Origin: Isoetes taiwanensis
Taxonomy: Eukaryota; Streptophyta; Lycopodiopsida; Isoetales; Isoetaceae
Direction: 5' to 3'
Assembly: GCA_021234155.1 (NCBI GenBank)
Contig: JAJEKV010000505.1
Coordinates: 1-64,000, forward strand
Length of the DNA: 64,000 nt
Position numbers and translations under genes: made by a program. The notes under the pieces were generated by a model. The model did no database searches and was not told the origin of the DNA. It worked only from the letters and a program-made list of their open reading frames with translations. This document shows positions 3,062 to 32,667 of the stretch, one piece after another; the first letter of the stretch is position 1, and each line of letters opens with the position of its first letter.

Positions 3062-4622
3062 TTAAGACTGTCCCATCTTTTCAGGATTATCCATACCAGG
3101 ATGCTCGAAGGAGAAGGCCTCCACTATCACGAATTCACCTTTTACATCCGTGATCGTAGCCCAAAGTGCGCTCCTAAGATGGACATGCCATTGTGCATTA
3201 TATAGAAGAATGAGATTAGATTTGGTGCTCATCCCTTTTTTCTTCTTGTTAGCCCATTCTAGAGTGGTAAGGTCGTCCAGATGCATAAAAAAATCAAAAT
3301 CCAGAATAAAGTCATATGTCATAATCACCATTGTTCTCATGATTACATCGGGATCATCCTCCCCATCATCTGTCACATTGAAATATATGGATATCTGGTG
3401 CATGGGTGATGAAGCAGCACCCAATTGGTCGGATGAGGGTAAATCTTTTTCAATCCTCATTCTTGGTTTTTGAGGGGCTTTGAAGAACATCCCTGCAGCT
3501 ATAGACTTGGTTAGCTTGCTAACCGGTGTGTAAGGGGATTTCGGCTGCTACGGCTCCCGTCAAACATGCCACAATAAAGTAATTTGATCTGCAAACCCTC
3601 CTTGCATGTCTCTAGATTACTATAAGCTTCTCGGTCTGCCCACTCTTTTCTGTCCACAGAATCCAACCCATAATTTTGTGCCACATACATCTCATACTGT
3701 GCAATCTTTTTACCCTTCATTCTCTCCCTCTCAAACCTCCTCCGAGCAATATAAATGTCAGCATACTAAACCAAAGTGTACTTTTTGTCCTCATCCTCTG
3801 GAATATTTTCGAGCATAGCCCGACCACAACCCAAATCAAGCTGCCAGCATCTCTGCAAAAACCTGTACAGATTGACCTTGTACTTGTACTCGAGATCAAG
3901 GGCATGCCTCAAGTTATATTGTTCCATGTCACGCCCTTCCCTTCTTTTTTGCTTTGTAACAAGCGGCCTTTTTCTGCCCTTTGGAGCCCCTGCTACAACA
4001 ACATCCCATTCGTACTCCGTGAGCAGGTGAAGTGCTTTTTGGTAGAAGACTATACACAACCATGAAATAGACAAACATGCTTAGCCTTTTTACTACTATA
4101 GAGTAATACCTGCATTCCCAAGCTGCATCATCGATCTCAAGTCCTCCTCTGAGTAGGCTGCTACCACTTTAGAAGGTATGGGTTTCCCCCGGGTTGGGCT
4201 AACCTCTCTGTCCGCTTGATCTTCTTAATCTCCCTCAAGGAGCTCGGATGCAAAGGAGTTAACTGTTTTTCCTCCTTGGCCTTGGCTTTCACAACCCAGG
4301 CTGCTTGCATCATCTCCTTCTACTCTGGAAATAACTCCCCTTCACTACCGTGATCCTCTTCCACAATATGATCTCTGTTCTTCCTCAGGATCCACTTCCA
4401 TTCTCTTTGAAGATTCTGCTACATCCTCTTTCTCCAAGGATTCTTCCCACGGCATCTAGAAGAAGGATGAGCTCTCACTCTCATCCTCACTCTGCCATTT
4501 TTGAAATCTCGCCCCCCGAGTGCTTGCTCTGTCGCCGGAAACTGCCATAGCTTATCCTTTGTTTTCCTACTCTGTTTTTTCAAAACCCTCGACCACTGTT
4601 CTGACACGAGAAAAATTGACAA
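3062..4622 (-). pseudogene. Unrecognised decayed coding region
   Basis: Several minus-strand frames read as one protein broken by single-base shifts and stops. In order (5' to 3' on the minus strand): 4622-4419, a basic N-terminal part; 4074-3766, with EYKYKVNLYRFLQRCWQLDL; 3720-3511, with ARRRFERERMKGKKIAQYEM reading across a stop; and 3490-3062, with STKSNLILLYNAQWHVHLRS. Between 3520 and 3480 a frame change joins the third part to the fourth. I do not recognise the family. There are no transmembrane segments or cysteine fingers. The last part ends in a stop at 3062. It may belong with the fragment at 116-530. Confidence 0.45.
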
Positions 4623-4650
4623 TTATTAGAATATTTGATATCTGACAACT

Positions 4651-4830
4651 TTATGGGTAGATAAAACCATTGCTAGGGAAAGAGATACCACCATATTTAC
4701 CCAGAAATGTCATGGCTACAAATACAGCTGCTTTTGGCCAGAAAACCATGTTCCTGGCCGGCCAAAAATACCATGTTGTTGGCCAGGGAGAATAATACAT
4801 TGTTGAGAAAAAATAAGCTAGTGTTATTAT
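4651..4830. repeat. GGCCAGAAA-type short repeats, locus 1
   Basis: Degenerate repeats of the word GGCCAGAAATACCA, for example TTGGCCAGAAAACCATG and TTGTTGGCCAGGG. A cleaner tandem array of the same word is at 16770-16920. No gene is supported here. Confidence 0.4.
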
Positions 4831-5265
4831 AACACTAGAGTTGTCCGCTGGACCATCCATGGTCCATGGACTAGAATTGGTCCATCGTACCTCTGCTACT
4901 TAAACACATATATCTAGAGATGAACTTCTCCATTTTGCAATCTACCACCACCTTTTGAATCTTCACTTGATTCTTTATGATCTAGAATAATTTCATGACC
5001 AATGGATTCAACTATGTCTTGTGGTAATTGTCCAAACCTCATACAACTTAGCAGTTTTTGTACTAGTCCAGAACTGCATTCTTCATATTTTCTAGCACAA
5101 AGAGGTCCAAACCTTGCTAAAATCAAAAGCAAATGGTTTTTTATGATAAAACATATTGATTTGTATGTTCCCAAGTTTTTTCACTATTATATGACATTAG
5201 ATGAAGTCGCCATATCCAATTTTCCTCAAAAGAGCTGTTTGAGGGTATGCATTATTTCTCTCTTA

Positions 5266-6239: not shown

Positions 6240-9200
6240 TTAATCCAATTCCAAAGGGCCCAAGCGGGGGCATTGGAAAATATGCAGAGGAGTTTCATTA
6301 CTACCACATCCTAAGCTGCATGACTCATCAATGACATCTCGAAATTTTGCTGCTCTAGTGTTACAGGAAAGGCTTTGGTTCAAAATAAGCCATCTAAAAA
6401 TAACCATTTTCCTTGGACAGTAGAGTTTCCATCCAATTTTAGCTAGCTTGATAGCCTTTTTTTCATGACAATTCCATTTTAATAGCCATCTTCAATCTCG
6501 GTTTTCCAATAAAAGTGGGTAAATCCTTGAGACTTTGTATCGGCTTATTACGAATTGTCCATATTGGAACTTCATCGCCGGGTTTCGACATTGGAACTTT
6601 AGCCATAATGGCATTGTAAATTTTTCTATCTGTTCTGTTCCCCTTATCAATGTTTCAACTCTTCCCAAGTTATCCATTCGACCTCTTTGAAGATCATAGA
6701 GAGTTTTAGTCCCCGCTCTACACCAAGCTTTATATCTTTGGGGGGTGTTTAAGAGCCGGACACCCCTCTTCTGAGAAGCTAAGCCCATATGCCAGAAGAA
6801 GTGGCAGTTGCCATTTTCCAAATTATCTTCTTTTTCCCTGAAGAGGAGAGAGACTTCATTCCAGGCTTCTAGAATTCTTTTTACTAAAGGGGAGGTGTGG
6901 CTGCCTGTGTTGAATTGAATGAATGCTGATTCAGGAAGTTGGTGCTCCATATTCAAACTTCCAACAGGCCTAGATTGCAATATCCAATACCTCAATAATT
7001 TCATAGTTGGGAGATTTGGATCCATGAATGGCTCTCCATACTAATTTTGGTAACCCGAGCTTGGATTTTGTTTAAACATATCTTTGCAGCCCAAACCTCC
7101 CTCCTTTTTGGCCTCACCAGGTTATGCCAGGCCACTTTATGATCCTTGTTCCAAATAAAGTTCCTGATAGTAGATTCCAGCTGATTGTAGGAGGCTTTGT
7201 CTGCTATTATGACTGACGAGAAATAAACATGCGTGCTGGTGATAACATTATTGGCTATCTCAATTCTGCCAGCCATAGAAAGGGAAGTAGGATATTGTGC
7301 GACTTTTTTTAATCCTATTCACTATTGAAGACCACAGTCCATGGATATTCATGTTCAGAGCTAGGGGTAGGCCAAGAAGCTTAGTGGCTGAGTTTTTTGG
7401 GAGGACTTTAACATCTTCCATAACTGTATTATCAGTCTCCATCACCACCAAACTTTTTTCTTTGTTAAGGTGAACACACGAGGCTTTCCCAAATATGCTT
7501 AACATGTTTAAGAAGTTTTTCAAGCTATGACCATCATCCTGTAAAAAACAGAATGTGTCATCAGCATATTGCATCAAAGTTAGGGTTTTTCCTTGTTGAG
7601 GTAGTTGCAAACCCTTGAGATGGCCTTCTTGCAACATGCTCTTGGTAGCACGAAGTTACCATTTACGCTACTATAAAGGAATAAATAGGGTGCCGGGGGC
7701 AACCTTGTCCCTCCTCTTTGAATAGGAAAGAATTATTTGGATCCCCATTCACTAGAATAGAAGAACATGCTTTAAGGTTGAAACCATGTATCTTCTTAAT
7801 GAAATCTTCAACAAAAGCCCATTTTCTCCATAGCTTTATATAAAAGGGCCATTTGATTGTATCATAGGCTCGCTAAAAATCGGATTTAAGTAACATGCAA
7901 CCTTGCTTTGAAAGCTTGTTCGGTGTAATCCTTCATGAGCTCCCACAAAGTTGTCAAGGATGCTTACGTTTGGAAGAAAACCAGTTGAATTTGGAATTCG
8001 ATCACATTCATCAAAGTCCCTTTCAACCTTTCTACCATGATCTTAACAATGAGTTTGTATGTGGTGTTAGTGAGTGAAATTGGTCTCCACTCATTAAATT
8101 TCTTTGGATTCTCTGTCTTAGGGATCGTGAGCAACCAGGCCAACATTGATTGAGGGATGAAGACTCTGTGCCTCCCATGCTCCCTGCACCAAGGTGATAA
8201 TATCTTCCTTCAACATATCCCAAAATTGGACATAAAATTCAGGGGGCAGTCCATCCGGCCCTGGACTTTTACCATGGTCCATCATCTTGAGAGTATCAAA
8301 AATCTCTCTTTCAGAAGGAGTTTCAAGCAAATCTTCAGTATCAATATGAGAAGATTCAGGGATAGCCTTGAAGAAAGTGTCCATGCTGTGTAGATCCACC
8401 TGCTCCTCCTTAAATAATTCAACATATTTTTGTCTAAAGAAATTCTTAATTCCTGCTTGGGTCCTCTATAATTTCATTTTTCATTCTCAACCAACTGAAT
8501 CCCATTGTTTACAGTGCATTTTTTCTTGGCTCTAAAAAGAAGAAAGAGTTATTGCTTTTATCCATGCAATTAGTGTAAATGCATTTACTTCTCACAGCCA
8601 TGGACTTTGCCTCCTGTTCTTCTATATGCTTTACCTTGACTTCCAGTTCACTCTCCTGCTGTTGCAATGCTACATTTGCTTTATCCACAAAAAGTTTTTC
8701 TCTGACTTCTTTCATTGCCCTGTAGATAGAATTTTTTTCTTCTTTCTTTCCCATTGTCCACTTCTTTCCCCATTCCTTGATCCAAGCTTTGACTTTTTTG
8801 TACTTCTTGCTGAAATTTCCCATCGACCACTTGTTCCAGACCTAGGTAAACTTAAGAAGAAGTTCTTAAATTCTTCCACAAATTTTGCATTTGATAGATA
8901 TGAAGTATTGAGTCTAAAAGGGGTAGACATTCCTCTCGGGGCTATAGTGTTATCCTTGGATTGCAAAATCTGAGGAAAATGATCTGACAATGAGTTACCA
9001 AAATCAGAGGTAACTATTGCACCTTCCCAAGGGCTCATTCCTGGATTAGTAATATAGTATCTATCCAAGAGGCAGAAAATTCTATCCTCATTTTTCCTTT
9101 GTTGCTCCGGGAAAAGGTATTTGAGGATGAAGGGGCTGGTAGACAAAGGGGGCATCGGGAGCTCCCACTCTTCTTTTTTCTTTTCTTGTCATATTAATTT

Positions 9201-9560
9201 TCTTGCCCACTTTTCGATCCCAAGATGGAGTATTGTTAAAATCCCCACTTAAGATCCAATTATCGCATTTTGACTCTGGAGCCAGATCCTCATTTCTTTC
9301 CACTGATTTTCTCTTTCCCCAGGGTCTGTAGATGCATAAACATTTATTACTCCCAAGGAGCCATGCTTTGTATCCAAAACAACACATAACCATCACTTTG
9401 TTGGATGCACAAAGGCTGAAATCGTTTCATTCCCTTCCAAGCAATGAGAGTGCCTCCTTTTGTACCCTTTGCTACGCCTTGGATGGAGTTGTACTGGGGT
9501 CAATCCATTTTTCCTGGTGTGTTTGATGCTTCAAAACTAGGGAGCCTATGTTCTTCAAAG
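6240..9560 (-). pseudogene. LINE ORF2 (endonuclease, reverse transcriptase), broken
   Basis: Endonuclease part: WILSGDFNNTPSWDRK in the frame 9396-9088, and GNSLSDHFPQIL in 9155-8712. Both are signature blocks of APE-type LINE endonucleases. Reverse transcriptase part: HGKSPGPDGLPPEFY in 8399-8118, FNEWRPISLTNTTYKLIVK in 8146-7964, and MQYADDTFCFLQDD (catalytic YADD at about 7557-7568). This is followed by thumb-like sequence 7276-7001 and 7025-6492. A zf-RVT-like end, GCGSNETPLHIFQCP, is readable at about 6270-6330. The protein nicks DNA and copies LINE RNA at the nick. Multiple frameshifts and stops make it non-functional as sequenced. Confidence 0.9.
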
Positions 9561-9570
9561 CATTAGAATG

Positions 9571-11644
9571 TCAGCTTTTCAAGTCCCTGATTGCAATAAT
9601 GGCTCTTTTTCTCTTAAGAGGTCCCTTGATCCCTCTAAGATTTTCATTTAATTTATTTCTTGTGTTACTTGCCGGCCCATCCTTGACAAAAGTGAATTGT
9701 CTCTTCTGTCTCTTTTTGACAGACCCTGGCATAGGTGTCATAAAGACTTCCTCTTCCACAGTTAACATTTGATCAGTTGGGGCCCTAATTTCCTGTTCAG
9801 GCTCCTCACTTAATGTATTCTGATCCATGTCATTTGTCTTCTCTCTTTCTATGTCAGTTGGAGTTTGAGGCACAACTTCAATGTTATCCCCATAATCCTT
9901 TGGGAGATGAACTTCCACGGGAATCAGGGATAATTGTTTCCATATCTGGCTGCTTGTCAAAAAGCTTTTGAGCCAGAAGTGGTGAAACCTCAAAAAATTT
10001 TGAGCATTCTCCAATGTATTGATTCCCATTAGGTTCTTGTTCAGATTCAGTTTCAGAGTCCATCTGCTGGACATCAATCCTTTCCCTTATTGTAAGTTTA
10101 GGATTTGCATTGACATTTTCATTGAAATTTGAGTGAAGAGGATCTTGCTGATCTTCAATCTTTTTATCCTCCACCTTCCCTTTCAATTTGAGGTTTTCCA
10201 CAGGTGGGGGTTTATTTAACACTTTTACTTCCCCCATCATTTCTTTTTTTTGTTTTCTTCACCCATTCCTTATTGGCCTTTTTCTTTTCCCCCTCCTGCT
10301 GTCTCTTTTGTTGTTGTTTCTTGATCCTTCTGCTGCTACCATTCCTATTTTTATTTTGTTTGGCTCTCTTAGACACAGGAGTAATCCATTCACCACCCTG
10401 CTGAATCTGTTCCTTAAAAGCCACCTGTTTGGGATAGATCCTTTGACTAGCAACTTTGCAAATACCTCCTCCATGCAATCTGAGACCACAGTCCTCACAG
10501 ATCGGAGGTAGTCCATTTAATTGGATCTTTAAATATCGGTTGTTTCCAAAGAAATCAATGTATTCGATTTCTCCCGGGATCTTCTTTTGCAAATCAACCT
10601 GTTTCCATGCTCTCGGGGCCTTTTCAGAAACAGTTTCCATTCCAATGTATTCTCCTATCTCGGAGAAGAGAATCTTGAAAATTTCCTCGTGCCAATACAT
10701 TGGATTTAAACCCTCTGTTGACACCCAGGCTGGGTGATGCACTTGTGAGGGATTTTGTGGGTCAAAGGTCGGGGTCTATTTCTGAAAGAAAAATTGCGTG
10801 TTTGCTCTTGAAATAGTACCCTGTTTTAAAAGAAATTTTGCTGATGACTCACTCCAGCACTCCACCATGAAGTAGGGAAATTCCAGCCAATAAATCCGCG
10901 TAATTTGAACTTCCCTACTCATCTTGATGAGTTCGAGCTTGATGCTAGAAAGATTAACTCCCTCATGCCTCACGCATCCAATTAATGCCCTGGAGCTGTA
11001 GATACCCATTTTTTCTTTTGAATAGGAGTGATTTAAAACAGGTTTTTTACCTCGAAATTCTTTGGGGGCCGATTGATTCATCTTTGCTTGAACCTCCCTT
11101 TGAATCTCGTTCACCCTATCGATAATAGGCTGCACCACCGTCCCATTTTGCATCTCCACCATCGTAAGCCCTGCCTGCTTTCTTGTGCCCACCATTTTCT
11201 TGCTTTCCGGCTCCGGCTGCAGGTAAACCAAGAAATCTCCAAACGCTTAATGATCTTTCCTGGACCGGACTTCCCCTTTTCGATTAGCCTCAATAGCGGT
11301 CGAATGATGTCTTCTTTTTCCTTAGGTTCTAGCTTGTGGAGAAGCGTTTCGGATCCGATGTCTTGTAATCTCGTGGTCCCGGCCCACCTTATCATAGTTT
11401 CATCCCTGGTCTGTGGAAACTGTCACTGTTAACCCCATATTTCCCTTTCTTTGCCAAGGTGCAGGCACACATTCCATGGTTGCCCATCTTCTTTCCCTTC
11501 AAAAGATACAATCTGTTGGCTCTGTCCCTGTTGCACACTCTCCAAGGCAGATTGTTTTATCTCCCCTTCTTCCACATCTCCCAATACGACCGTAGGGGCC
11601 ACATTCCCATTTTCCTGACCTATTTCCATCTCCCTCACCTTCAT
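9571..11644 (-). pseudogene. LINE ORF1 (nucleic-acid-binding protein), broken
   Basis: Five minus-strand pieces run in order from the ATG at 11644. The second and third contain the segment resembling the plant DUF4283 N-terminal domain, with RIYWLEFPYFMVECWSES in the frame starting at 11231. The next frame (10742-10212) has a perfect C-x2-C-x4-H-x4-C knuckle, CEDCGLRLHGGGIC, followed by a very basic Lys/Arg/Gln-rich stretch. The C-terminal part is acidic then basic and ends near 9571. In plant L1 elements ORF1 packages the RNA and ORF2 copies it. At least four frame changes separate the pieces. Confidence 0.8.
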
Positions 11645-11722
11645 GTCGCTAGGCGCTCATTCCCGCCGTCATCCCTTAGGCAGCCAGGGAAATTAGATCC
11701 GTACCCACAACTTCTGATAGCC

Positions 11723-11736
11723 CTATTATAAGTTTT
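11723..11736. repeat. LINE target-site duplication, 5' side
   Basis: Exact copy of the 14 bases at 5266-5279. It marks the 5' boundary of the LINE. Confidence 0.85.
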
Positions 11737-12219
11737 GGCCTAATTCTTGTGGTCATAAGTTGTTGACTCTAAGAATTCATAAGTTATAATGATTTCAAGG
11801 TTGACTAAAGAATCTTTTATATAGAATTCAGGATAAAAAATAAATCTAAAATGATTTAATAAAACTCGTATATCATCTTTAAAAGGGTAATAAAAGATGC
11901 ATGCTATGCATTACACTTATATCTATGTAGATTATAATTTTATCGACCTGTATGTAGCAGTTAATCATGCATTCTCTACATTTAGTTGTGTTTGTTACTA
12001 CACGATATTGGAGTTTAAGTATGCTAATTGTACATATAGTTCATCTTTTAGAAAATGCTATATTTTTTATGAATGCAAGGCTTCTTTGGCAATATAGATG
12101 TCAAATTTGATGTGAAAGTGACATAGTAGTTGCAAGATTTAAATATAAATATCCATGGACCTTTAATGGTCAATACTTAGACACTGTCAAAATTTGAACT
12201 CACTCTGGTAAATGGGGAT
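11737..12219. other. AT-rich non-coding stretch with a dispersed repeat
   Basis: No gene is supported. The segment 12000-12110 is a diverged direct copy of 16090-16215: both contain AAGTATG, then ATAGTTCATCTTT or a variant, then ATGAATGCAAG or ATGGATGCAAG, then AATATAGAT. Only the repeat relationship is evident. Confidence 0.5.
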
Positions 12220-12552
12220 TTGTGTAATTTTGACATAAGCTTTATGCAGTATGACCTTAAACTTAGTCATAACATCACCTTTGAGAATTTCCAATTGGAC
12301 TTTCCGGAGGGCTTTGAAATTGATGAGTCACGTGCTTTGCTTCGTTTTGATGACTTGCTAAACAATTTCGAAGGTCCTTTTGCTAAAATGTATTGCTACA
12401 TAAATATCCCTTTGTTTAAGAGAGGTAAGACAATAAACTCAACCAAACATAATTTCATTCTAAGACAACTCCCACCTATGTTACACCATGCAAAACCCAT
12501 TTGTAGAGAACGTTCATTTGATTTGAAGAAGATAAAGAATTATAGAAAATGA
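12220..12552 (+). CDS. Hypothetical 110-residue frame
   Basis: The frame is open for 110 codons, with a plausible mix of residues (FENFQLDFPEGFEIDESRAL) and no membrane segment or known motif. It ends at the left boundary of the inverted-repeat element at 12553, so the true 3' end may have been lost. I do not recognise it. It may equally be a chance frame or an exon remnant. Confidence 0.25.
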   Translation: MCNFDISFMQYDLKLSHNITFENFQLDFPEGFEIDESRALLRFDDLLNNFEGPFAKMYCYINIPLFKRGKTINSTKHNFILRQLPPMLHHAKPICRERSFDLKKIKNYRK

Positions 12553-13172
12553 TAAGTTCTAGAACTACTATGGGAGAACACAGACAAGAATGCTGTCATT
12601 AGAACTTGAATCGCATGATTACATGAGGATATGGTTTTATTTTAAAGCATAATGTCTCCTAATGCTCATTTAAATCGAAAGCAGTGTCTTCTGTATGCTC
12701 AATTAAATCAGTTTAGGTTAGCTAATGGGCGGAGTGCATTTTATTTCAAGTGTTTTACAGAGCCTGTTATAACCGTACTGGATGGTTATTGCTACTTTAC
12801 GATGTTGTGACTTGAACGTTATATTTCTTTGGTGTTTACTCATGGTTACTTTGGTGTGCCGAAAGTAAGCAGGAAAGTTGTTTTGCCTTGAGTTTTGTAA
12901 TCTACCAACCTTATGTCCAATTGCATCTTAGATATTGTTGCCCTTTTTCTCTTTGCCATTTGTTCAACATGTGTGCTTATTCTCTATGAGCCATTTTCCT
13001 TTGAGATTTTTGGAAGTATGTGGCCTTCTATACTACCCAATTTTTTGGGCTTTTGCCATTTTTTATGAACATCCGCTAGCCCCGTACTCTTGGCCCGAGC
13101 TTTAGTGGATCTGCTTTCGTTCTGCCTCTTCTTCAGCATTCTTGTCTGTGTTCTCCCATAGTAGTTCTAGAA
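12553..13172. mobile_element. Small inverted-repeat element (MITE-like)
   Basis: The first 42 bases (AAGTTCTAGAACTACTATGG onward to AATGCTG) reappear as the reverse complement at about 13134-13172, almost perfectly. This is the structure of a short non-autonomous DNA transposon of about 620 bases. ATGAT occurs just outside both ends, which may be part of a target duplication but is not decisive. The interior holds no recognisable protein. Confidence 0.6.
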
Positions 13173-13232
13173 ATGATGTTTTCCTTCGTTTCACCGAATA
13201 GAAGGAAAACAAAGTTCTAGAACTACAATGCA
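13164..13232. repeat. 69-bp palindrome at the element's right end
   Basis: GTAGTTCTAGAA followed by GTTTTCCTTC is mirrored by GAAGGAAAAC and GTTCTAGAACTAC, around a loop near 13190-13203. It shares its outer arm with the 12553-13172 terminal repeat, so the TTCTAGAA end has been used twice. Confidence 0.55.
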
Positions 13233-13392
13233 GTTGGTAGTTAGTTATTTGGCAGTTTCTAGACCCCTATTTAGCTTCTTTGTCGCCCATTTCTTTCTTT
13301 ATCAGCCTCTTTGCATCTCCCCGCTTTCTTCCTTCTGCTTGGGCCCACCCCCCACCCTTCCCTGCATGTATATCTTATTGGTAAACTAATAT

Positions 13393-13570
13393 TTGGTTGA
13401 GGGCCTAGTGCTGGTGGAGGCCGTGTGCCCTGGTTTGAGGACAAGGGCTTTGGTGAGGCCTTGGTGCCTGGTTGAGGCATGTGTGCCTAGTGGAGGCCTT
13501 TGTGCCTAGTTGGAAGCCTTGGTGGCTGGTTGGGAGGCTCGATGCCTGGATGGCCTTGGTGGCCTTTTAA
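13393..13570. repeat. GAGGCCTTGGTGCCTGGTT minisatellite
   Basis: About seven degenerate units of roughly 20-27 bases built on GAGGCC..GGTGCCT.GTTG. No gene is supported. Confidence 0.6.
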
Positions 13571-13800
13571 TTCACTTTTTGGTGTTTGCAGGAAATAGTT
13601 CGTGTGCGCGTTCCTTTAACAGGGCTTTTGACGAAAGTGTTGGATTCTGGGCGTAAGATCGAGATCAATAGAGAAGGAAGCTCAAACATGTTTCAGCTTT
13701 GGCAAAAGTCTTTGCTTTATTGTAGTTTCCACCCGACAAGGCTGGTCAGCATGAGGGTGTAAGGTCTTTTCTGTGTTGATTCCAGCATTGGTTAGTGGTC

Positions 13801-13867
13801 CCATTATGGTCAGGGTTTTTCCTCGAAAACCCGAAAGGGCGAGGTTTTTTAATCCCAGCCATAATGG
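13801..13867 (+). other. Conserved stem-loop, copy 3
   Basis: A perfect 9-bp outer stem, CCATTATGG with CCATAATGG, encloses GGG paired with CCC and an inner hairpin CCTCG-AAAA-CCC-GAAA-GGG-CGAGG with a GNRA-type GAAA loop. The core matches copies 1 and 2, but the outer stem has a different sequence that still pairs. 13571-14394 otherwise shows no gene; it may hold an LTR-like remnant. Confidence 0.55.
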
Positions 13868-14394
13868 TTTCACTATCTTGCTATCGATATGTATTTGGTT
13901 TGATTATCAAGGAGATGCCCAAAGAGATCATAGCATCCAAATATCAAGGTAATAATATTGCAGCTATGAGGTTTCAAACGTAGCACATACAACTACCCCA
14001 ATGTCATGTTGCTTATCTTACAATGGACTCAATATTACATTTATTGTTACATTGTCAGTCTACTGTAAGCATCCTCAAACAGATAATTTTAGTCTTATAA
14101 TTTAATTTGCAAGACCTTTAATTTGTAAAACCTAACTTCCAGTTTGTAGCTCATATTTTTTTGTAGCTCATATAATCAAGCGCAATCATCGAATTCGAAT
14201 ATCTATTATTCTGACATAAATCAGAGGCAAAACACAACCAGTATGCAGAAAGGCCTATTTTTGCTGTCCTAAGGACTGGAGTTCGAATCACAGAATAAAG
14301 TGTTTTAGCCTCTCAATATCCTTTAAACATTAACACATATGATATCATCGATTGTGATACTTGTCTCTGATATATTTGTTGACAGAACCACCTA

Positions 14395-15130
14395 ATAACA
14401 GAAAAAGGGGAACCATTTATACCAGGAATTGAGCAAAATCCTTATATGCTGACCAGTTTCGGCAACGTATCTTCCTCAGGCCAACATGAGAATGAGAGAA
14501 TACAATGACTTCTTGTTCTTGTGCAAAATTAAAGGGGTCTCCTTTAGAACCACCATCTCCCATCATAAAATATAAATATTTATCTCGAGGGCCAAAGATT
14601 ATAAGTCCACCATGATGTGTGGAAAACGGGAGGCCCATTGTTGTAAGTATTCTTGTTATTTCCTGTGAATTGGATAAGACTGCCTGCAGGAGAAAGGAAA
14701 TGATTAAAGCTTTGCAACTCCTTGTTAGGAAAAGCAAAATAAGAAAATCATTTAACTTCGATGATGCTTTATATTCTCGCAATAACACTAGAGTATTGGC
14801 AAAGGAGCTGGTATCCATGCCCACAAGCAATGCGGGACTACAATCCACATCGAGTTATAGGAACATCTTCCCACAACAACGACCATTTGCTTTTGTCACA
14901 ATTATATGGGACAAAGCGTCCATTTTTAAAAATTAGGATGAAAAGCCGGTGACATGAAACCAAGTTGAGCATTGTTAACAACTTGATTTCGATATTCAAA
15001 AAGAGGGAAGATTTGTTGGACTAATAGGTCCAGAACTACCCTCTTCGGCATGTTGGCTAACCAAATGACACCCGTTGATTAGCCAAGAAAACTCTGTCTC
15101 AAAAAAAAGAACAGGCAAATGCCTCATTCA
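14395..15130 (-). pseudogene. HIPL (HHIP-like, sorbosone-dehydrogenase fold) pseudogene
   Basis: The frame 14848-14417 contains GGLIIFGPRDKYLYFMMGDG followed by DPFNFAQ, a strongly conserved block of plant HHIP-like proteins (HIPL1/HIPL2, secreted or membrane-anchored, related to soluble glucose/sorbosone dehydrogenases). The preceding ILTTMGLPFSTHH also fits. Upstream, in shifted frames at about 14860-15090, read GVIWLANMPKRVV, QLGFMSPAFHPNF and KNGRFVPYNCDKSKW, colinear with the family. Downstream, IPGINGSPFS fits the next family block after a stop. Several stops and frameshifts show it is decayed. The N-terminal cysteine-rich part is not seen. Confidence 0.78.
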
Positions 15131-23949: not shown

Positions 23950-24570
23950 TAACAAAACATGTTTTTGTATTATATACTGTCTACATCACGCCAAAATATC
24001 AAATATTGAAAAAACTCCCGTTCTCCTGATTCTCGGTCCTTTTTATTCAGGAGTTGGAGAATTGCCAAATATATCGATTTTATTAGGGAACGGGTTGGCA
24101 AAGGTTTATTTTTCAACTCAGGTCATTCATTAATGGACTGAAAAGGGCCTCTAATAGTTTTGCTAAATATATCTCCCTATTACATCATTGCACTCTAATC
24201 AAAGGTTAGAAAAGTCGGCATCTTTTGTAGAAAGAATCATTGATGATGCTTGCGTTGGCAATTTAATCACTATTGCGGGCATCCTATAAAGGCAAATTTC
24301 TTTGATATACATCGTTATTACGGCTAGAAGTGCCATCAATATCAAACACCTAATAAGAGGACGTTAAACTTTGTTGTATTATATGCTACAACTTTTCTAT
24401 GGCTCCTTAGCTATACCCCAACCAATAAGGCCGGGTACCATGATAAATAATAATAAAATGGGATATAGCTAAGCACACAATGGGAGGAGTCATACATGCA
24501 CCATGGAAAATACATAATATCATACAAGGGTCCGAAACAAAAAGGACACAAATGGCTCTCCCCTCCTTAA

Positions 24571-24574
24571 TCAA
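24571..24574. repeat. TCAA target duplication, left
   Basis: TCAA directly precedes the left terminal repeat and is matched by TCAA at 31966-31969. Confidence 0.65.
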
Positions 24575-24605
24575 GGGCAAAAGTATGTTGGCGGGGGTAT
24601 CAAAA
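24575..24605 (+). repeat. Left terminal inverted repeat
   Basis: Begins GGGCAAAAGTATG and pairs with 31937-31965. Two substitutions and one 2-base gap separate the arms. Confidence 0.8.
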
Positions 24606-25559
24606 GCATCGCGTCCGGACGCATGCTTATATGTGGTTTTAGCCCGCTTTTAAAGCACCCCCGCTTTTGCTTAATTTGGGTGTTGGTGGGTGTACCGCTG
24701 GTCATTTTTCACGCCCTTCATGTACCTCACGGCCGTCCACCTCGAACGAACGTTAGGAAAATGATTGTGGGATTTTGGCTACGGATTTTCACGAAGTGGT
24801 TGTACCTTGCAAATTCCGAGTGGTGAACTACCGATCTCATGGCCCATGCAAATTCTCCTCAATTCACTTATTCTCCAGTCTCAAGAATTTCATGGCGCCC
24901 TTGATGCGGCACGAAGGCAATCACCGTTTAGCATTGGATTTTCGAAACTGATGAATTCCAATCTGATGATCTAGATTTGTTGAATGTCAATGCAACAGGA
25001 AATATCGGCGTGAAGATCGGTTTTTCTCTGCAATTTACAAGAAATTGAATGCAAGAGAGAAAGAGAGAATCTGATTACAATAAGATAAGATAAAGCGGTG
25101 GTTGAGCGGGGGAAGATCGAGCATGAGGACTTGAGGCAAGAAATAGCCAAGCTTGTAGTTGATTACCTCAACAAGCTCACTAAAAAGCATTCACCGAACT
25201 CAAGGCCGGAAGTGTGATGAAAGAGGGTGGTTCATCACCACAGAAATGGAAATCTCGGAACACTGAATTTTGCCAAATCCAAAGGATTGCAAGATAGGGT
25301 TCTTGCCTCAACAACTTGAAACGGCACAATGGTAGCCACAAAGAGGCAAAAAGAACCATGCTTCTTCCACAAAATTGAGATGCAATTCCACTATGGCGGA
25401 AAATTAGGTACATCTAATTCTTGCTTTCATGCTTGTGCTTTTTTATGCTTTTAAGTGCTTAATTCTGAATTTTAAAATCAAGTGCAGGCTTCTTTATCCT
25501 TGAAGGTGATTGTATCTGCTTTCGGTCTTTGGTTGGGATAGGTTCATTGAATAATGTGC

Positions 25560-28158
25560 AATATCTCTTATGATAGGTTCCAAAAGGGCAACAATTGCAA
25601 CTGCTGCATTAAGAAAATCTAAAGCTGTCCTTGGATATGGTCCGTGGTCTTGCTTCCAAAGGAGGTTGAGGTGCGATTCTCTCACCCCTGCTTGCAAGCA
25701 AAGCATAATAGAATACGGAAACAAAATAGCAGAGTCTCTCCTTGCAAGAAAGATGTTGTGAACACTGTTGGAGAGTCAGACTTCCAAATTTCTTATCCCT
25801 TGCACCTTATGGAGGTCACACCTGGTATAAGGTTCCATACAAAAGCTCCTTGCTATTCTTGCATAAATATTTCTAACAAAAGGCCACCATTCGGTGACTT
25901 TTTCAACAATACAAAAAGGCACATCCTGAACACCCTGTTTGCTTAAAGGCTTTCGAGAAGTTGAAGCCTATTTATGTAAAAAAATATCGAAAGGAAATCT
26001 GATATTGCATATACCATATGAAGTTGGGTATGCGTGGTAGGCTGAATGCTTTAAGGTCAGTGAAAAACGGATTTCATGGTGAAGAGTGCAAAATGCTGTT
26101 AGAGGTCACGTGGACTGGTGAGAAGATGTCGACCAACCAATATCACGTTATGACTCAAGCGGCGAAGCTCACGGAGGGTCGTGGTTTGCAACAAGAGCGA
26201 GGGTGAAGAATGGTATAAACATGGCGCTTGATCGAGAAATGTCGAAAGTGTGGCATAAAAAGTCTTCCTATATGTCCAAAAAGAGAGGATCATGAGTTCT
26301 TGCTTGAATGGAAAACATTTTTAAAAGATAATACTCTCTTTATTGCATGTTGCAACATGCTTGAGATGTGTTGTCATCCATTTGAATACTGTGCTTTTTG
26401 TGCTCTGGACCTTGCCTCTGATTCGGTGGAAACAGAAGAAGCTGGTGGAGTTGCAACTATGTGTTACCAAGGAAGTACCGGTGGGCTAGAAAAAAGATCA
26501 ATGCGACCAAGAAGGGAAACAAAAGTAAGAAATCCAAGGTAGGCGGTGGGACCTGATCACAAAGGCGCAAAAAGCACAAAGGCGAGACCTCAACGGCAAG
26601 GGGAAAAAAAGAAAGAACCAAAGCGGTTCTTAGATTGTCTTACAAGAGAACGGCGGTGAAGAATTTTATTTCTATCGTGTTCCACATTGAAGATATTTGT
26701 GCCACACAATTCTGAGGGCTAGATGGCGGGGCCACAATTCGAGTTACTGGAGTTGCCCCAAGATAGCACTGTTATTTATGTAATTGATTTTGCAGAGAAT
26801 TACAACATAAAAATATAAAGGGAGGTTCAAAGCCAGCACTGGCACAATGACCAGATAACAATTCTTGTCCACATCACGTATAGGATAGACAAAAGCTCTG
26901 GGAATAGAAAGCTATTGAAGGAAACCCATTTTTACTTAAGTGATGACAAGATTCATGACACTCTTTTTTTTTTGTGCAACACTTGTCTTAGAAAGCACAA
27001 TTCATGGCTTGTATCAAATGGTGTAGAATTCTCCAAGCATATAGTTTGAATTCAGGATGGTTGTTCTAGCCAATTCAAATATGCCTTCTACCATTCTATT
27101 TCCTACCAAGATATCACTATGATGAGCTATGGGGGAAGAAAATAGTATAGAATTTCTTTGGGACAGCCCATGGTAAGGGAGAGCACGATGGACAAGGGGC
27201 AGTCCTTAAAGGGGCATTTACTAGAGAGCAGCTCAAGTATGATGGGGTGAGATTTAGGGGTGATGCTGATGCTTGTGAATTCGCAACTCGTTGGAATGAA
27301 GGTACCAACAACGGGAACATCAAAAGGTATTATGCTTTCATCTGGCAGATTACGTTGAGTAATGATGTTGGAATGAGGTGACATCCGCTATCTTATCTGC
27401 TGTATACTGGTAGTAGTGCTGTAATAACTGTGCGAATAGTATATGCCGTCTATCTGTGAACTGCTGTAATGTGATGAGTAGTGCTGTATTATGCTGTCTG
27501 TGAGCTGCAATACTTGTTGCTGTCTCTTTGCAGGTACTTCTGGTTAATTGGAAAGGATGATGTTACAGACCGGCTGGACTGTGCCAGGGTGGAAGGGACT
27601 AAGGAAATACACAGCATCCGGACATACATGTCCAAATCGACTACAAAAGTGGCTCAGAGAGGTTTAAGTTGTTTCTGTGGTAACTGTTTGAAGGGAAACT
27701 GGTCATGTTGTGTGAATAGGCACAGGTTGAAGAATTGGAAGTATGTGACACTAAAGCCTATGAAGTCTACTGGCGAAACACTTGATGACGAAATTGACGA
27801 GGCATTTTTTGAAGGTGATGGGGAATGGCTTAGTGGAAACATAGAGGAAGGTGACAACTTTGCAGTTGTAGCCAAGGAGGGCAATCAAGAGAATGCAGAC
27901 TTCTATGTGGTGAAGTGTGTGAAGCCGAGGCATATTCTTGACAAGATTGTACATGACAGTTGGGGTCAGACTTTTAATGTCGATGAACATGTGCTGGCTG
28001 GTGTATACTATGTTATCCAACCCGATGGTAGTTGGGAGCTACTTCAAAACAAAGGTCTTACTTATCAATACAGTCATCATGTCACATCAATCAAGTTTGA
28101 GATGAATCAAATTCCCGACACCAACAGGTTTTCCTTGGCGGGGCTGTCCCATCGATGA
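25560..28158 (+). pseudogene. Transposase-like protein, broken
   Basis: Consecutive frames read as one protein family that I recall from several plants and some aquatic animals as long uncharacterised transposon-type proteins. In order: NSRVSPCKKDVV (about 25720-25755); FEKLKPIYVKKYRKEI and CIYHMKLGM (about 25950-26035); a C-x2-C block IEKCRKCGIKSLPICPKRED (26231 on); VIDFAENY (D at 26786) with QHWHNDQITILVHI; FYLSDDKIHDTLF; DGCSSQFK (about 27056); FFGTAHGKGEHDGQGAVLKG (about 27160-27220); and RGLSCFCGNCLKGNW in the intact last part 27481-28158. The three conserved Asp blocks could form a DDD-type catalytic site (inference). Stops, such as the one after YNIKI, and frameshifts disable it. Confidence 0.72.
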
Positions 28159-28359
28159 TCCTTGACCTACCATATGAAGGTTGAAAATGGTTTGACCTAG
28201 TCGTTTCATCATTTCAGCATTTATTTAAATTTTGAAGACCTTTGTCTTAAATTTTGGAGACCTTTATCTGGAATTTTTATGTTGTATTAGAGACATTACT
28301 TGGAATCAATACTCAAGATTACATAAAGTAAGTCATATATATATTACAAAAGGGTAGTG

Positions 28360-28960
28360 TCATGAGTCATTGAAGTTTTCAGAGTGGTTAGAGTCGTCAG
28401 GAATGGTGCCCAGCAACTGCCTTTGTACCTCTTCTGGAGCATTGAGGATATAATAGGCCGAGACAAGATAGTTGTTGAGACAGTAATCCAGCACATCAAC
28501 TGTCTCCTTCTGCAACCATGCATCAGTGATGTCTAGCTGTGAGATTGTTTCTTCTATGATATGAGAAGACAAATAATCCAATCTTTGGACACACAAACTT
28601 CTGCAAAAGTTGTCCTCTTCCCCGCCTTTGAAAGGCATAACAGCGGTTGTGTGCGAGTTTAGAAACCCTTTGTGTAGGTCATCATCTACCAAGAAAATGG
28701 CATACCATGATATTCGTGAAAATCCTCAAGTACAACCTTCAACTCCTTGAAAAAAGTTGCTTTCTTTGTGCGGTTGGATGCTCGCATGCATAACACCGCT
28801 CTTGACCATATACCTTCAAGAATTTGATCATAAATCGGGGAACAATGCATCCACCATATCCCCTTGTATTTAGCAGAGAAGCACTCAGATCACAATATCA
28901 AACCTGCGAAGGCCCACTCCACAAACTCATAATACCCCTGGTGCGCAAATGAGGTACTTA
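28360..28960 (-). pseudogene. Transposon gene B, C-terminal part
   Basis: The frame 28692-28360 ends in TAG/TGA context after LGTIPDDSNHSENFNDS. It joins upstream, through a frame change near 28690, to a readable stretch with IYDQILEGIWSRAVLCMRAS and ELKVVLEDFHEYHGMPF. It is likely the 3' end of the minus-strand gene of the transposon, converging on the transposase gene. The product is not recognised. Confidence 0.45.
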
Positions 28961-29451
28961 CTTGAGTTTCTTTTACAACATGGTTCGATTTGAGGTGGAG
29001 GCAAGATTTTTGGTCTATTCTCCTACAGTTGTATGCGTGTCAAGACACCATTTATGTCAAGCACCATCAACTTACGCCCGGGTTCCCATCCCTCAACGTT
29101 TGCACTCATGTGTCGATGTATGCATTGATTGTGCCGGTCTTTGCGATATGTCTTGGACTCTTTTGGACTACTATGACCATCCGGATCTGTACGGGTGTCT
29201 TTGGCATCTTAGAGATGTCTTGGACATTCTTTGTGATCTCTGGACGGACTCTGCTTTAGATTTGCTACCCGATGATGGAGAGTGCCGATAGCCATAGTCG
29301 ATACATGTCGTGATTAGTACCTCCCTGCCCCAAGCGTATTTGTGTTTCTTGGCTATCGGTAACCCTTCGCGGTGGCCTTCCTTGCTTTTATCCTCCATTT
29401 CATCATTCACAACCCTGCCTTGTTCTCCCAAGATGCAAGGATGTGCTCCAA

Positions 29452-30406
29452 TTACCTAACCGAATTTTGTAGAGAATACACAAGGTGAAATATACGGGAT
29501 AATGAGCACCTTTTGTATGTTAGAGTTTGTGAGCCGCACTCCTTTATCATCAGATTGTCTTCTTCATCCGATTCACTAAGTATAACCATTGGTGCCTTTT
29601 TTCTGCAGACAAGTTTTTTACTCAAGCCTAAGTTGAATGAATTATCCAAATAACATTTGCACATTCAAGGTGGAATAAAACAGGGGATCAAATATATTAA
29701 TTGTTTGAACAAAACCTTCCGGTTGATGGTTTGGGGTTGTCTTGAGCTATCAAGATTTGCACGCTTGAAATACATATGGCAAAATTACATTAGCCTTGTT
29801 TTTTCCAAATGCTACTTCTATAGGGACGTCTTCATCAAGATCAACTTCTGACTCACCCTCACTCTCTTCTTCCACAACCTTCCTGGTCCTTGACCGTGTC
29901 AATCTATTGACCTTGGAAACGACTGCCTGAACCTGCTTGTCGACATCTTTGCCGTCGTTTTTCCTTCTGCAAAGAACCGTATTAGAGGAGGCCTTTGTAG
30001 AGGCAGCTGCAGGATTTGGAACTATAAGATAATTGGTAGCACCATCAGTACTACTTGAATCTCCCTTAGATTCTGCATGGGTTGGTGTCTTCAAACCTTT
30101 GTGATGCCAGTGTACGCAGTTGTGCTGCCAGACTAACTTGTTGTCCAATGTCTCAAAGACATCTTCTAATGTTGCCAATTCAAATTGAGACCCTAAAAAA
30201 AGGCATGTACCTTTTTTTTCCATGTCTTGGTGTGGAGTTTTCACCCTTGTAGACTTGTGCTTAGCTGATCCTGGGGTCCTTTTACTTCTTGGTGTATTGA
30301 CTTGTTTCCTTTTCCTGTTGCTATCAAGAGTTGTGGCTACATGCTCATCAACATCAATCATCTTATTCTCGGTTTTGTGAGATGCTCCAAAGATATAACA
30401 CTTCAC
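29452..30406 (-). pseudogene. Transposon gene B, middle part
   Basis: A 218-codon frame (30406-29750) rich in Lys, Arg, Ser and Thr (NRKRKQVNTPRSKRTPGSAK looks like a nuclear-localising stretch). A more ordered segment follows (GSQFELATLEDVFETLDNKL), then an acidic tract (EEESEGESEVDLDEDV). A smaller frame with ILSESDEEDN lies at 29664-29452. Not recognised. It is probably part of the same minus-strand transcript as its neighbours. Confidence 0.45.
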
Positions 30407-30417
30407 GATTGATCAGA

Positions 30418-30726
30418 TTAAAGCTTCCCCAATTCACGCACTAACCCCGTGAGGAATAGTCTCGAGCACTCGAGGCAAAGATGTTTTTTCCATGAGCAAA
30501 TGAGGCAGCTCACATGGTAATGATGTCCACATTTCATCCGCAAGATGAGGGTGTAATCATCCGGAATGCAAGACCCGCAGTGGAGCATCTCCCCACATCT
30601 CCAATTGGCAATTGGAATGGTATTGAGTGATACGACCCGGTGATCATTTCTCTTGGTCATCTCCCTCAACACTTTGACGATACGTAAGTGCTGGCTTTTT
30701 TGCAAGGGAGGGACTCGTTGTTGCAA
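30418..30726 (-). CDS. RING-H2-type zinc finger (transposon gene B)
   Basis: A 102-residue frame whose second half has the full ring of ligands: C50-x2-C53-x12-C66-x1-H68-x2-H71-x2-C74-x9-C84-x2-C87. Visible pieces are CGSC, CGHHYHVSC and CLEC. This spacing matches the RING finger consensus, typical of E3 ubiquitin ligases that bring an E2 enzyme to a target. The frame ends at 30418, and the next frame downstream starts at 30406. Upstream, in another frame (about 31050-30830), reads ESMIQGMQDALKMQQSDLVS, so the finger is probably one exon or frame-broken part of a larger protein. RING fingers are unusual in transposons, so a captured host gene is an alternative. Confidence 0.55.
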   Translation of the reverse strand: MQQRVPPLQKSQHLRIVKVLREMTKRNDHRVVSLNTIPIANWRCGEMLHCGSCIPDDYTLILRMKCGHHYHVSCLICSWKKHLCLECSRLFLTGLVRELGKL

Positions 30727-30829
30727 TCTCGGCGGTTAGTCGACCACCTTTTGTACCATGGTTTCATCTATTGTCCCACCCCCATTTCAAGGAGGGACTT
30801 CAAAACATATCTCGACATATCTTTCTCCC

Positions 30830-31650
30830 TCCAAAGAATGAATCTCGGAGAGGCACATGCATTAGGATATCGTGATTTTGAAGGCGTGCAATATTGTCCT
30901 TTATGGTCAGCAACTTCCCCTCTGTAGCCGAGAAGAAGGTGCCCTTTGCCTAAGATTGTGCAACTAGTTCCTTCTTGGACACTAGATCACTCTGTTGCAT
31001 TTTTAGGGCATCCTGCATACCTTGGATCATGCTTTCAGGCAAAGGGCAATATTTTCTCCATAAGTCGGAGAACGCCTTTGGGCACATTGCGGTGTTACTC
31101 GAATGACAACCTCCCCCTTCTAATTTTACAACGGTTTCTCGGCCGAGGCTAGCCTTTCTGCTATGCTTTCAGGTGCTGTTGTCTGCTGTGATTTGTTGGG
31201 CTCTCCTATGCTCACAGGGCCGTTGGTGCTGGGTTCACTCTTAATCTTGCTTTCGAATAGGTTCGCCAGCTTTTTGCCCAATTAACCTTGAAATTTTCTG
31301 GATTCTGCTTGCCACTTTGGCAGTTGTTGAATGCAAATAGATAGGAAACCGTCTTCCTTCTCTATTCTTCAACCCACGGGTATACCTTGCTTTCAAAGAG
31401 TTCAATTAAAGATTCTTCATGCTCGGCCTTACTTTTGTCAATTGATGTTTTGTTGGAAATGACACCATTGGTATCCCAAACCTCGTTATACTCTGCAGCA
31501 GAAATGACATCGTTCAAAATTGAGAGGGATGTACACCCTCGTTTGGTAGACCCGCATAAGCATGGAAGTCCTCCTTCGTTCGGCAATCAGCCAGGTCCGG
31601 TCTTAGGGGCACGTTCCTTCTGGGCTGGAAGAAAGCAAGAAAAATAAATT
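30830..31650 (-). pseudogene. Transposon gene B, N-terminal part
   Basis: The frame 31586-31362 begins MPNEGGLPCLCGSTKRGC, a short Cys-rich start that may be a degenerate zinc finger, followed by an acidic helix-like part. Further along, a frame near 31050-30840 reads ESMIQGMQDALKMQQSDLVS and LLTIKDNIARLQNHDILMHV. Stops between the pieces may be introns or decay. Not recognised. Confidence 0.4.
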
Positions 31651-31936
31651 AACAGGGCACCCTAAGCCCATTCAAAATTGGCAGTGCATTTTGCTTACCT
31701 GGCAAGATGGCATCCGTTGGAATTCTTGGTTGAGCCAATGATTAACAACCTTCTTCACCATAGTGCATTTGAGTTTTGGAATACTAGAGTGAATGTGGAA
31801 ATTCTCGAGCTTCTTCTCCACGGGCTATTTGGCCGGAGTAGCAAAAGTTGGGGAACAGGAAAACGTTCCTTCCGGGTCACATTCATTACTTACGTTATGT
31901 AAGAAGGTTATGATTAGAGCGGGTGACCCTACGTTT

Positions 31937-31965
31937 ATTTGATACCCACCAGCATACTTTTGCCC
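31937..31965 (-). repeat. Right terminal inverted repeat
   Basis: The reverse complement of GGGCAAAAGTATGCTGGTGG. The outer end abuts TCAA at 31966-31969. Confidence 0.8.
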
Positions 31966-32667
31966 TCAAGTCGAAGTGTATCTCCATCATCGAGTTGAAA
32001 CATACCTATAATGAGAACACAACCACTAACATGGGGGGACTTGTCCCTCCATCAAGTGTGAAATACATGACAAAGGGTAGGAACCCTTGACCATCTAGCC
32101 TTGGGGCATGCCCCTTAGCTATATGCCACAAAAATAATGTTGGACATCATGCTATAGAATAAAGAAGAAAGTAGCTAAGTATCAGACACAAGGAGGGACT
32201 AACCACCATGTGAAAAAACATATCTATCATAGAGCTTAAATAATCTCGAATGGCACAACCCTCAGAACACCATCCCTCCCTCTAGATGAGACCAAGCGAA
32301 CCTCATCTCCAAATAAACACGCAAGCAAACAAGGGGGACTCATACCTCCAACATGAGCTCAATACAATATGAGAATTTGAACTCTTGATCTCACATCCTA
32401 GGAAGAAATTCTAGACTTAGCATCGTGACCACGTGGTGCAAGCTCAACAACCATAAACAAATATCTTCCCATAGGAAATATCACCAACATAAGGAAGGCT
32501 CTTACTTTGCTACTTATTGAAATCAGTGTGAACCAACTCCATACAACATCAAATATTGAAACTACAGTAATAGATTTATTGGCATAGGGTGTTCTTGAAC
32601 AGTAGCAAGAAATATGTTGGCTACATCATGAAGTTTTTGTGATTTGGGTTGTGTGATATTGAGATGT
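31966..32667. other. Spacer between two transposons; TCAA target duplication, right
   Basis: 31966-31969 is the right TCAA copy. The rest has no convincing frame. It carries old-looking repeat words and shows no features. Confidence 0.4.

What the first reader, a model, noticed from the sequence alone, without database searches (positions are those of the whole stretch)
24575..31965. Plant DNA transposon with a 4-bp TSD, GGGCAAAAGTATG ends and two convergent genes
Seen: matching terminal inverted repeats of about 30 bases, TCAA on both flanks, a plus-strand transposase-like gene with DFAENY, DGCSSQFK and HGKG..DG blocks, and a minus-strand gene set ending about 200 bases away. Known: this protein type occurs widely in plants and some aquatic animals, usually annotated only as uncharacterised. 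Inferred: the three Asp blocks could be the catalytic triad, and the 4-bp duplication points to Sola or an unnamed group.
Basis: partly seen in the sequence, partly recalled or inferred. Interest (0 to 1): 0.85.

Follow-up and report, generated by a model that had tools for sequence, protein, structure and literature searches.

The report
Two-gene plant DNA transposon family
This is a worn-out copy of a cut-and-paste jumping gene of a plant, whose two head-on genes - one looking like the cutting enzyme, one like a helper with a phosphatase-type fold - also occur together in very different relatives in the same genome, although the protein-family libraries searched do not list the enzyme.

Summary
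Window 24575-31965 is a 7,391-bp element with 28-30-bp terminal inverted repeats and a TCAA duplication; six aligned paralogous empty sites carry one TCAA. Of 16 independent copies whose two ends could be paired, 12 have exact 4-bp duplications, 2 have 3 of 4 bases, 2 have none; none reaches 5 bp. The sequence varies (TCAA, ATAT, AGGT, CTAT, AATC...): length is fixed, motif is not.
The plus-strand gene has diverged relatives here with open frames up to 629 codons (family A rows 28-39% identical to that one; dN/dS 0.09-0.26 in five pairs from other families). Its three Asp blocks are nearly invariant and in RNase H-like order. No Pfam, NCBIfam, PHROG or PDB family matches credibly. The minus-strand gene looks like a kept partner: its NIF/FCP1-like HAD domain recurs in families A, B and C, with a remnant in E; a Ulp1 domain occurs in C; RING-like clusters are by eye. 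The window copy is broken.
It works like a DDD cut-and-paste transposon. New variant of a known kind, or an unnamed superfamily.

The parts
24571..24574 (.). left target site duplication TCAA
   Evidence: single TCAA at paralogous empty sites
24575..24604 (+). left terminal inverted repeat GGGCAAAAGTATGTTGGCGGGGGTATCAAA
   Evidence: like ends in other copies and families
24713..25451 (+). possible first exon(s) of gene 1, broken
   Evidence: tblastn with the L019 ORF, 38-39% identity in two broken frames; exon status inferred
25675..26203 (+). N-terminal Cys-containing part of gene 1, broken
   Evidence: tblastn with the L002 ORF
26228..27339 (+). core exon of gene 1 (transposase-like): DFAENY 26786, DGCSSQFK 27056, HGKGEHDG 27169; several stops
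   Evidence: tblastn with an L021/L019 query; 151 matches in the genome; alignment A1
27532..28184 (+). C-terminal exon of gene 1 with CFCGNC cysteines; open to about 28135, then frameshifted (stop at 28158, homologous end 28184)
   Evidence: 84% over 210 aa to the L018 exon; aligns to the C-terminus of relatives; end read
28360..29100 (-). gene 2, C-terminal NIF/FCP1-like HAD domain (LDINGVL at its start), broken
   Evidence: less broken copies match PF03031 at 8e-12 and 3e-13
29111..29451 (-). gene 2, linker
   Evidence: tblastn with the L005 ORF
29795..30412 (-). gene 2, basic/acidic linker
   Evidence: weak Transposase_24 match 0.011, 16.3 bits under a cut-off of 28.7
30421..30669 (-). gene 2, RING-like Cys/His cluster
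   Evidence: pattern by eye; zf-RING_2 1.6 in the window, 0.083 in L002, both below cut-off
30878..31621 (-). gene 2, N-terminal domain and coiled-coil-like region, broken
   Evidence: tblastn with the L020 ORF; coiled coil by eye
31938..31965 (-). right terminal inverted repeat
31966..31969 (.). right target site duplication TCAA

Best explanation
A defective copy of a two-gene, cut-and-paste DNA transposon. Gene 1 is a DDD-type transposase: its Cys-rich N-terminus probably helps to bind the ends, and its RNase H-like core (D..D..D, 86 and 40 residues between them in family A) probably cuts at the GGGY end and joins it to the target with a 4-bp stagger, which leaves the 4-bp duplication. Gene 2 is a kept partner rather than captured cargo: an N-terminal domain, a coiled-coil-like region, a RING-like cluster, in one family Ulp1, and a NIF-like HAD domain. 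I propose that it helps the transposase through protein contacts or ubiquitin/SUMO control, or blunts silencing. Shown: ends, duplications, empty sites, many copies, purifying selection on gene 1 in relatives, NIF-like gene 2 in several families. Inferred: fold, triad, end binding, role of gene 2. It is Sola-like in anatomy; membership is open.
For: TIRs and duplications: 12 of 16 independent pairs exact at 4 bp, 0 of 16 at 5 bp (chance of 12 or more about 2e-26 under equal base use; many pairs were chosen because both ends had matched). Empty sites: 9 of 16 matches cross the junction, 6 aligned with one TCAA. Diverged families share the end pattern GGG[TC][AG].AAG.A (12 typed ends of families A-E). 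Gene 1: D235 20 of 20, D319 21 of 21, D360 20 of 21 rows with a residue; strand/helix order by a crude Chou-Fasman pass fits RNase H; dN/dS 0.09-0.26 in five pairs from other families. Gene 2: NIF matches in families A (3e-13), B (3e-6) and C (2e-4, just under cut-off); pairwise BLASTP A-C 1e-11, A-B 3e-5, B-C 2e-7, C-E 1e-8; Ulp1 in C (4e-5 on one uncut piece, 7e-8 on a typed mixed join).
Against: No fold was computed: the job was interrupted and the tool then switched off. No credible hit of gene 1 to a known transposase. D283 (21 of 21) and E373 (20 of 20) are as invariant as the proposed triad, so the third residue in particular is open; the rows include near-duplicates. Two of 16 pairs (C926, C1054) lack a clean 4-bp duplication. 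Right ends were not found for L066-L069, nor either end for C1033. Family A core dN/dS is only 0.50-0.80 in six pairs. The second family C copy reaches NIF only at 0.0055, A-E is not significant (0.15), A and C N-terminal domains neither (0.55). RING is below cut-off in A and unmatched in B and C.
Confidence: 0.88

Rival explanations
1. A true member of the Sola superfamily (Sola1, 2 or 3), extended by a second gene.
For: Published features met: 4-bp duplications, size, variable ends; DDD transposase by motif only (PMC10741241 passage); AT-rich 4-bp duplications in Sola2 (PMC3627910 passages); a moss Sola1, also in two Capsicum species, is listed (PMC9033089 table passage).
Against: No sequence kinship shown. 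No bacterial or archaeal relative found with the A1 profile, although Sola is reported in bacteria. Sola is said to be not common in flowering plants, but the kind of plant here is unknown.
Confidence: 0.45
2. An unnamed DNA transposon superfamily, related to neither Sola nor another named group.
For: 0 of 22 members match a transposase family in Pfam, and the PDB, NCBIfam and PHROGs give nothing credible; shared GGGY ends and two-gene layout.
Against: I do not know whether these libraries hold Sola or Academ models, so their silence does not exclude those.
Confidence: 0.4
3. Gene 2 is host DNA captured by chance (Pack-type cargo) in the window family.
For: NIF, RING and Ulp1 are host-type domains; C1054 lacks most of gene 2.
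Against: Similar NIF-like domains lie on the same strand and side in families A, B and C, with a remnant in E, although gene 1 of family A is only 28-39% identical to L046. Repeated capture of related host genes was not tested by a tree.
Confidence: 0.1
4. A chance inverted repeat around host genes.
For: None after the genome search.
Against: Repeated ends, duplications and empty sites.
Confidence: 0.01

Closest known systems
Sola superfamily (Bao et al. 2009, not held, recalled; described in passages of PMC10741241)
   Same: 4-bp duplications, short TIRs, size, DDD-type motif
   Different: no sequence link tested; a NIF/RING/Ulp1 partner gene is not mentioned in the passages that I read
Sola1-1_Ec32 of Ectocarpus (PMC12477816, passages)
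   Same: large element with a second gene on the strand opposite to the transposase
   Different: its second gene is ParB/DNA methyltransferase, not NIF/RING
Ginger1 (PMC2836005, passages)
   Same: 4-bp duplications; Ulp1 domain in some elements
   Different: Gypsy-type integrase, TGTNR ends, CCGG/CCGT targets, Ulp1 fused to the transposase
plant CACTA, PIF/Harbinger and MuDR elements
   Same: additional coding sequences beside the transposase (PMC9033089 passage)
   Different: other duplication lengths (MULE 7-12 bp in a PMC10741241 passage; others recalled) and other transposase families; none matched gene 1 here

Membership tests
Sola | 4-bp target site duplication | tested here: met
   12 of 16 exact, 2 of 16 with 3 of 4 bases, 2 of 16 not
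Sola | DDD transposase | tested here: inconclusive
   three near-invariant Asp in RNase H-like order; D283 and E373 are equally invariant; no fold
Sola | mostly 2-9 kb, some over 15 kb; TIR 11-1124 bp (PMC10741241 passage) | tested here: met
   7.4 kb in the window, about 9.1 kb (C926), 9.7 kb (C1007), 4.5 kb (C1054); TIR 28-30 bp in the window
Sola | sequence similarity to Sola1-3 transposases | not testable with these tools
   no Repbase proteins held; founding paper not held
Ginger | Gypsy-type integrase | tested here: not met
   no integrase match in 22 members
Ginger1 | CCGG or CCGT duplications, TGTNR ends | tested here: not met
   against PMC2836005 passages
Kolobok and piggyBac | TTAA duplication (PMC9587614 passage) | tested here: not met
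   0 of 16 pairs have TTAA
Mutator (MULE) | 7-12-bp duplication (PMC10741241 passage) | tested here: not met
   0 of 16 pairs match at 5 bp or more
Academ | transposase similarity (duplication length 3-4 bp recalled) | not testable with these tools
   no Academ protein held

The most novel reading that the evidence does not exclude
An unnamed superfamily of plant DDD transposons with GGGY ends and 4-bp duplications, in which the transposase has long travelled with a partner that joins a NIF/FCP1-like domain with a changed active site (DIN, DLN or EIQ where HAD phosphatases have DxD, the latter recalled) to ubiquitin/SUMO-type modules, as a dedicated host-interface protein.
Probability: 0.3. 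Interest if true: 0.72.

Novelty: new variant of a known kind. Interest (0 to 1): 0.55.

Why it matters
Hundreds of confirmed matches, and by rough first-look counts possibly thousands, in one plant genome belong to a transposase-like family that the searched libraries do not name, so annotators may call them host genes. The recurring partner gene makes a question testable: why would a transposon keep a phosphatase-like, ubiquitin-linked helper?

Tried and rejected
Gave nothing: viral contigs with the single protein and with profile A1 (12 and 14 pattern stretches, none confirmed), bacterial and archaeal genomes with A1 (71 stretches, none confirmed), plasmids (two hits at E 0.8 and 4, one unannotated, one under an ion channel gene), PDB (one hit at E 1.2, a methyltransferase; none), PHROGs and NCBIfam (best 0.15 and 0.0033, the latter far under its cut-off), motif strings in papers (none held them beside a Sola or transposase text of use), NIF/Ulp1/FCP1 with transposons in papers (listings only, nothing like this partner gene). 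Copies at 67-80% identity looked like frame-broken family A copies, not new families. A pattern for a variant HGKG block gave 4 hits (1 in the reversed control); one, L042, opened the other families. I first read the loss of homology between L066 and L067 as an element end; a genome search showed 38 of 39 other copies ceasing to match L066 at the same base, so L066 probably holds an insertion there. The chance, cargo and Ginger readings were set aside for the reasons given above.
Full report
Check of the observation. The element runs from 24575 to 31965 with TCAA on both sides. The left 230 bp has 40 matches, itself included, for 40 scored of 771 first-look candidates in the 1.66-Gb host genome; the right 230 bp has 57 matching stretches, itself included, for 40 scored of 467. 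The host is a plant: SBP-box domains, recalled as confined to green plants, give 54 matches, with 0 of 14 control genomes. Two more places, C32 (L001) and C1066 (L007/L008), show the same flanks, so they do not count as independent. On C1066 the two halves lie 45 kb apart and a second left flank half lies 7.4 kb before the right end, so that pairing is uncertain.

Empty sites. The two window flanks joined with one TCAA gave 16 matches. Nine run across the junction; the other seven are the two halves at the three filled sites plus one lone left half on C1066. Six of the nine were fetched and aligned, and all six read AATCAA then GTCGAA without an insert. The flank is itself a repeat, so these are paralogous empty sites.

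Duplications. Copies examined for both ends: family A, the window, 10 pairs, 5 loci and 10 more, 26 in all, with both ends found in 14; other families, 9 copies, with both ends in 4. The 10 pairs were chosen because both ends had matched; four of them lie 14-34 kb apart, presumably with nested insertions (not checked). Without the two shared insertions, 16 independent pairs remain: 12 exact at 4 bp, 2 with 3 of 4 bases (L002, L003), 2 not (C926, C1054); 0 of 16 match at 5 bp. C926 could be read as CAAG with one terminal C lost, or as a 3-bp AAG. The exact 4-mers are TCAA, ATAT (twice), TGAA, AGGT, CAAG, CTAT, TAAA, ATTA, AACT, AATC and AACA.

Gene 1. The core exon gave 151 matches for 150 scored of 8,289 first-look candidates; such candidate counts are rough. 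A variant motif pattern led to other families, and a search from there gave 152 matches for 150 scored of 7,891 candidates, many with long open frames. I fetched 20 of these; 19 gave a frame with the motifs, and 17 of the 19 went into alignment A1 with five family A rows, 22 in all. L046 has 629 open codons; the family A rows are 36, 35, 35 and 39% (core exons) and 28% (C-terminal exon) identical to it; the others 48-98%. D235 is kept in 20 of 20 rows with a residue, D319 in 21 of 21, D360 in 20 of 21; D283 (21 of 21) and E373 (20 of 20) are as invariant. A crude Chou-Fasman pass gives strand-D, strands, helix, strand-D, helix, strands, then a helix that starts at D360 and holds E373, the order of an RNase H-like transposase (recalled). 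dN/dS in five pairs from other families: 0.15, 0.09, 0.12, 0.12, 0.26 (some share a member); two further pairs had saturated dS; family A copies 0.50-0.80 in six pairs. Pfam showed no transposase match for any of the 22 members, best chance-like hit 0.0038; PDB, NCBIfam and PHROGs gave nothing credible.

Gene 2. In family A, stretches match NIF (PF03031) at 8e-12 and 3e-13. Family B (C926) matches at 3e-6, above the cut-off. Family C matches at 2e-4 (L067) and 0.0055 (L078), both under the cut-off. Pairwise BLASTP without composition correction links A-C (1e-11), A-B (3e-5), B-C (2e-7) and C-E (1e-8), but A-E only at 0.15 (typed, in part mixed rows). They lie on the minus strand, convergent with gene 1. 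The N-terminal domains of B and C are similar (2e-4), A and C not significantly (0.55). Ulp1 (PF02902) is found in family C (4e-5 for one uncut piece, 7e-8 for a typed join); pieces of B that look like it gave no match. The RING-like cluster of A reaches only 0.083, and pieces of B and C that look like it gave no RING match. A linker of A has a weak Transposase_24 match (0.011 and 0.17, under the cut-off), which I take as chance. A piece beside C1033 resembles the end of gene 2 of C by eye, without a Pfam NIF match. At the place of the HAD nucleophile motif A reads DIN, B DLN, C EIQ; that HAD phosphatases need DxD is recalled. Gene 2 dN/dS in family A was 0.16-0.67 in eight pairs.

Ends across families. 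The 12 ends typed into, from families A, B, C, D and E, fit GGG[TC][AG].AAG.A. Other ends seen depart from it by a base or two: the left end of L011, the right end of C1048 and the left end of C1007. Lengths: window 7.4 kb, C926 about 9.1 kb, C1007 about 9.7 kb, C1054 about 4.5 kb with a remnant of gene 2. For family D (L068, L069) and for L066 and L067 only the left end was found; for C1033 neither, in the flanks fetched.

Mechanism and name. Cut-and-paste by a DDD transposase with a 4-bp stagger explains ends, duplications and empty sites; a helper role of gene 2 is inference. Published Sola features that could be tested are met (passages read), but no Sola protein was available, so membership stays open. 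Ginger is excluded by the integrase, ends and targets. I found no paper on a transposon with this partner gene in the listings; that does not show that none exists.

Noticed in passing
window 24575-31965 against L001 (C32): The two copies share flanks that differ at 2 of 400 aligned bases, but their interiors differ at 701 of 7,241, in patches; in several patches L001 is nearer to other copies than the window is. Gene conversion or assembly errors in repeats could explain it.
   Followed up: partly
window 24529-24574 and 31966-32050: The insertion lies inside another repeat with nine uninterrupted relatives found.
   Followed up: partly
C1066 about 261196-306425 (L007, L008): The left flank of the window insertion occurs twice on this contig (261196 and 298888) and the right flank once (306341), so a local duplication or rearrangement is likely.
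   Followed up: no
L006 (C907), oriented element 7743-9821: A 693-codon open frame with a YADD block, LINE reverse-transcriptase-like (recalled), is nested in gene 2 of this copy and runs on in frame from its N-terminus.
   Followed up: no
L017, oriented about 4395-5108: Long CT-type microsatellite between the gene 1 core and the NIF-like part of gene 2.
   Followed up: no
L068 oriented about 7141-7269 and 9319-9697; L069 about 6977-7299: Short repeats, some with CCCTAAA-like units, follow gene 1 in family D where the right part should lie.
   Followed up: no
L076/L067 (C1034), about 9501-15109 of the joined stretch: The right part of this copy is present twice and inverted compared with C112 and C1007, after about 3.5 kb of other sequence.
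   Followed up: no
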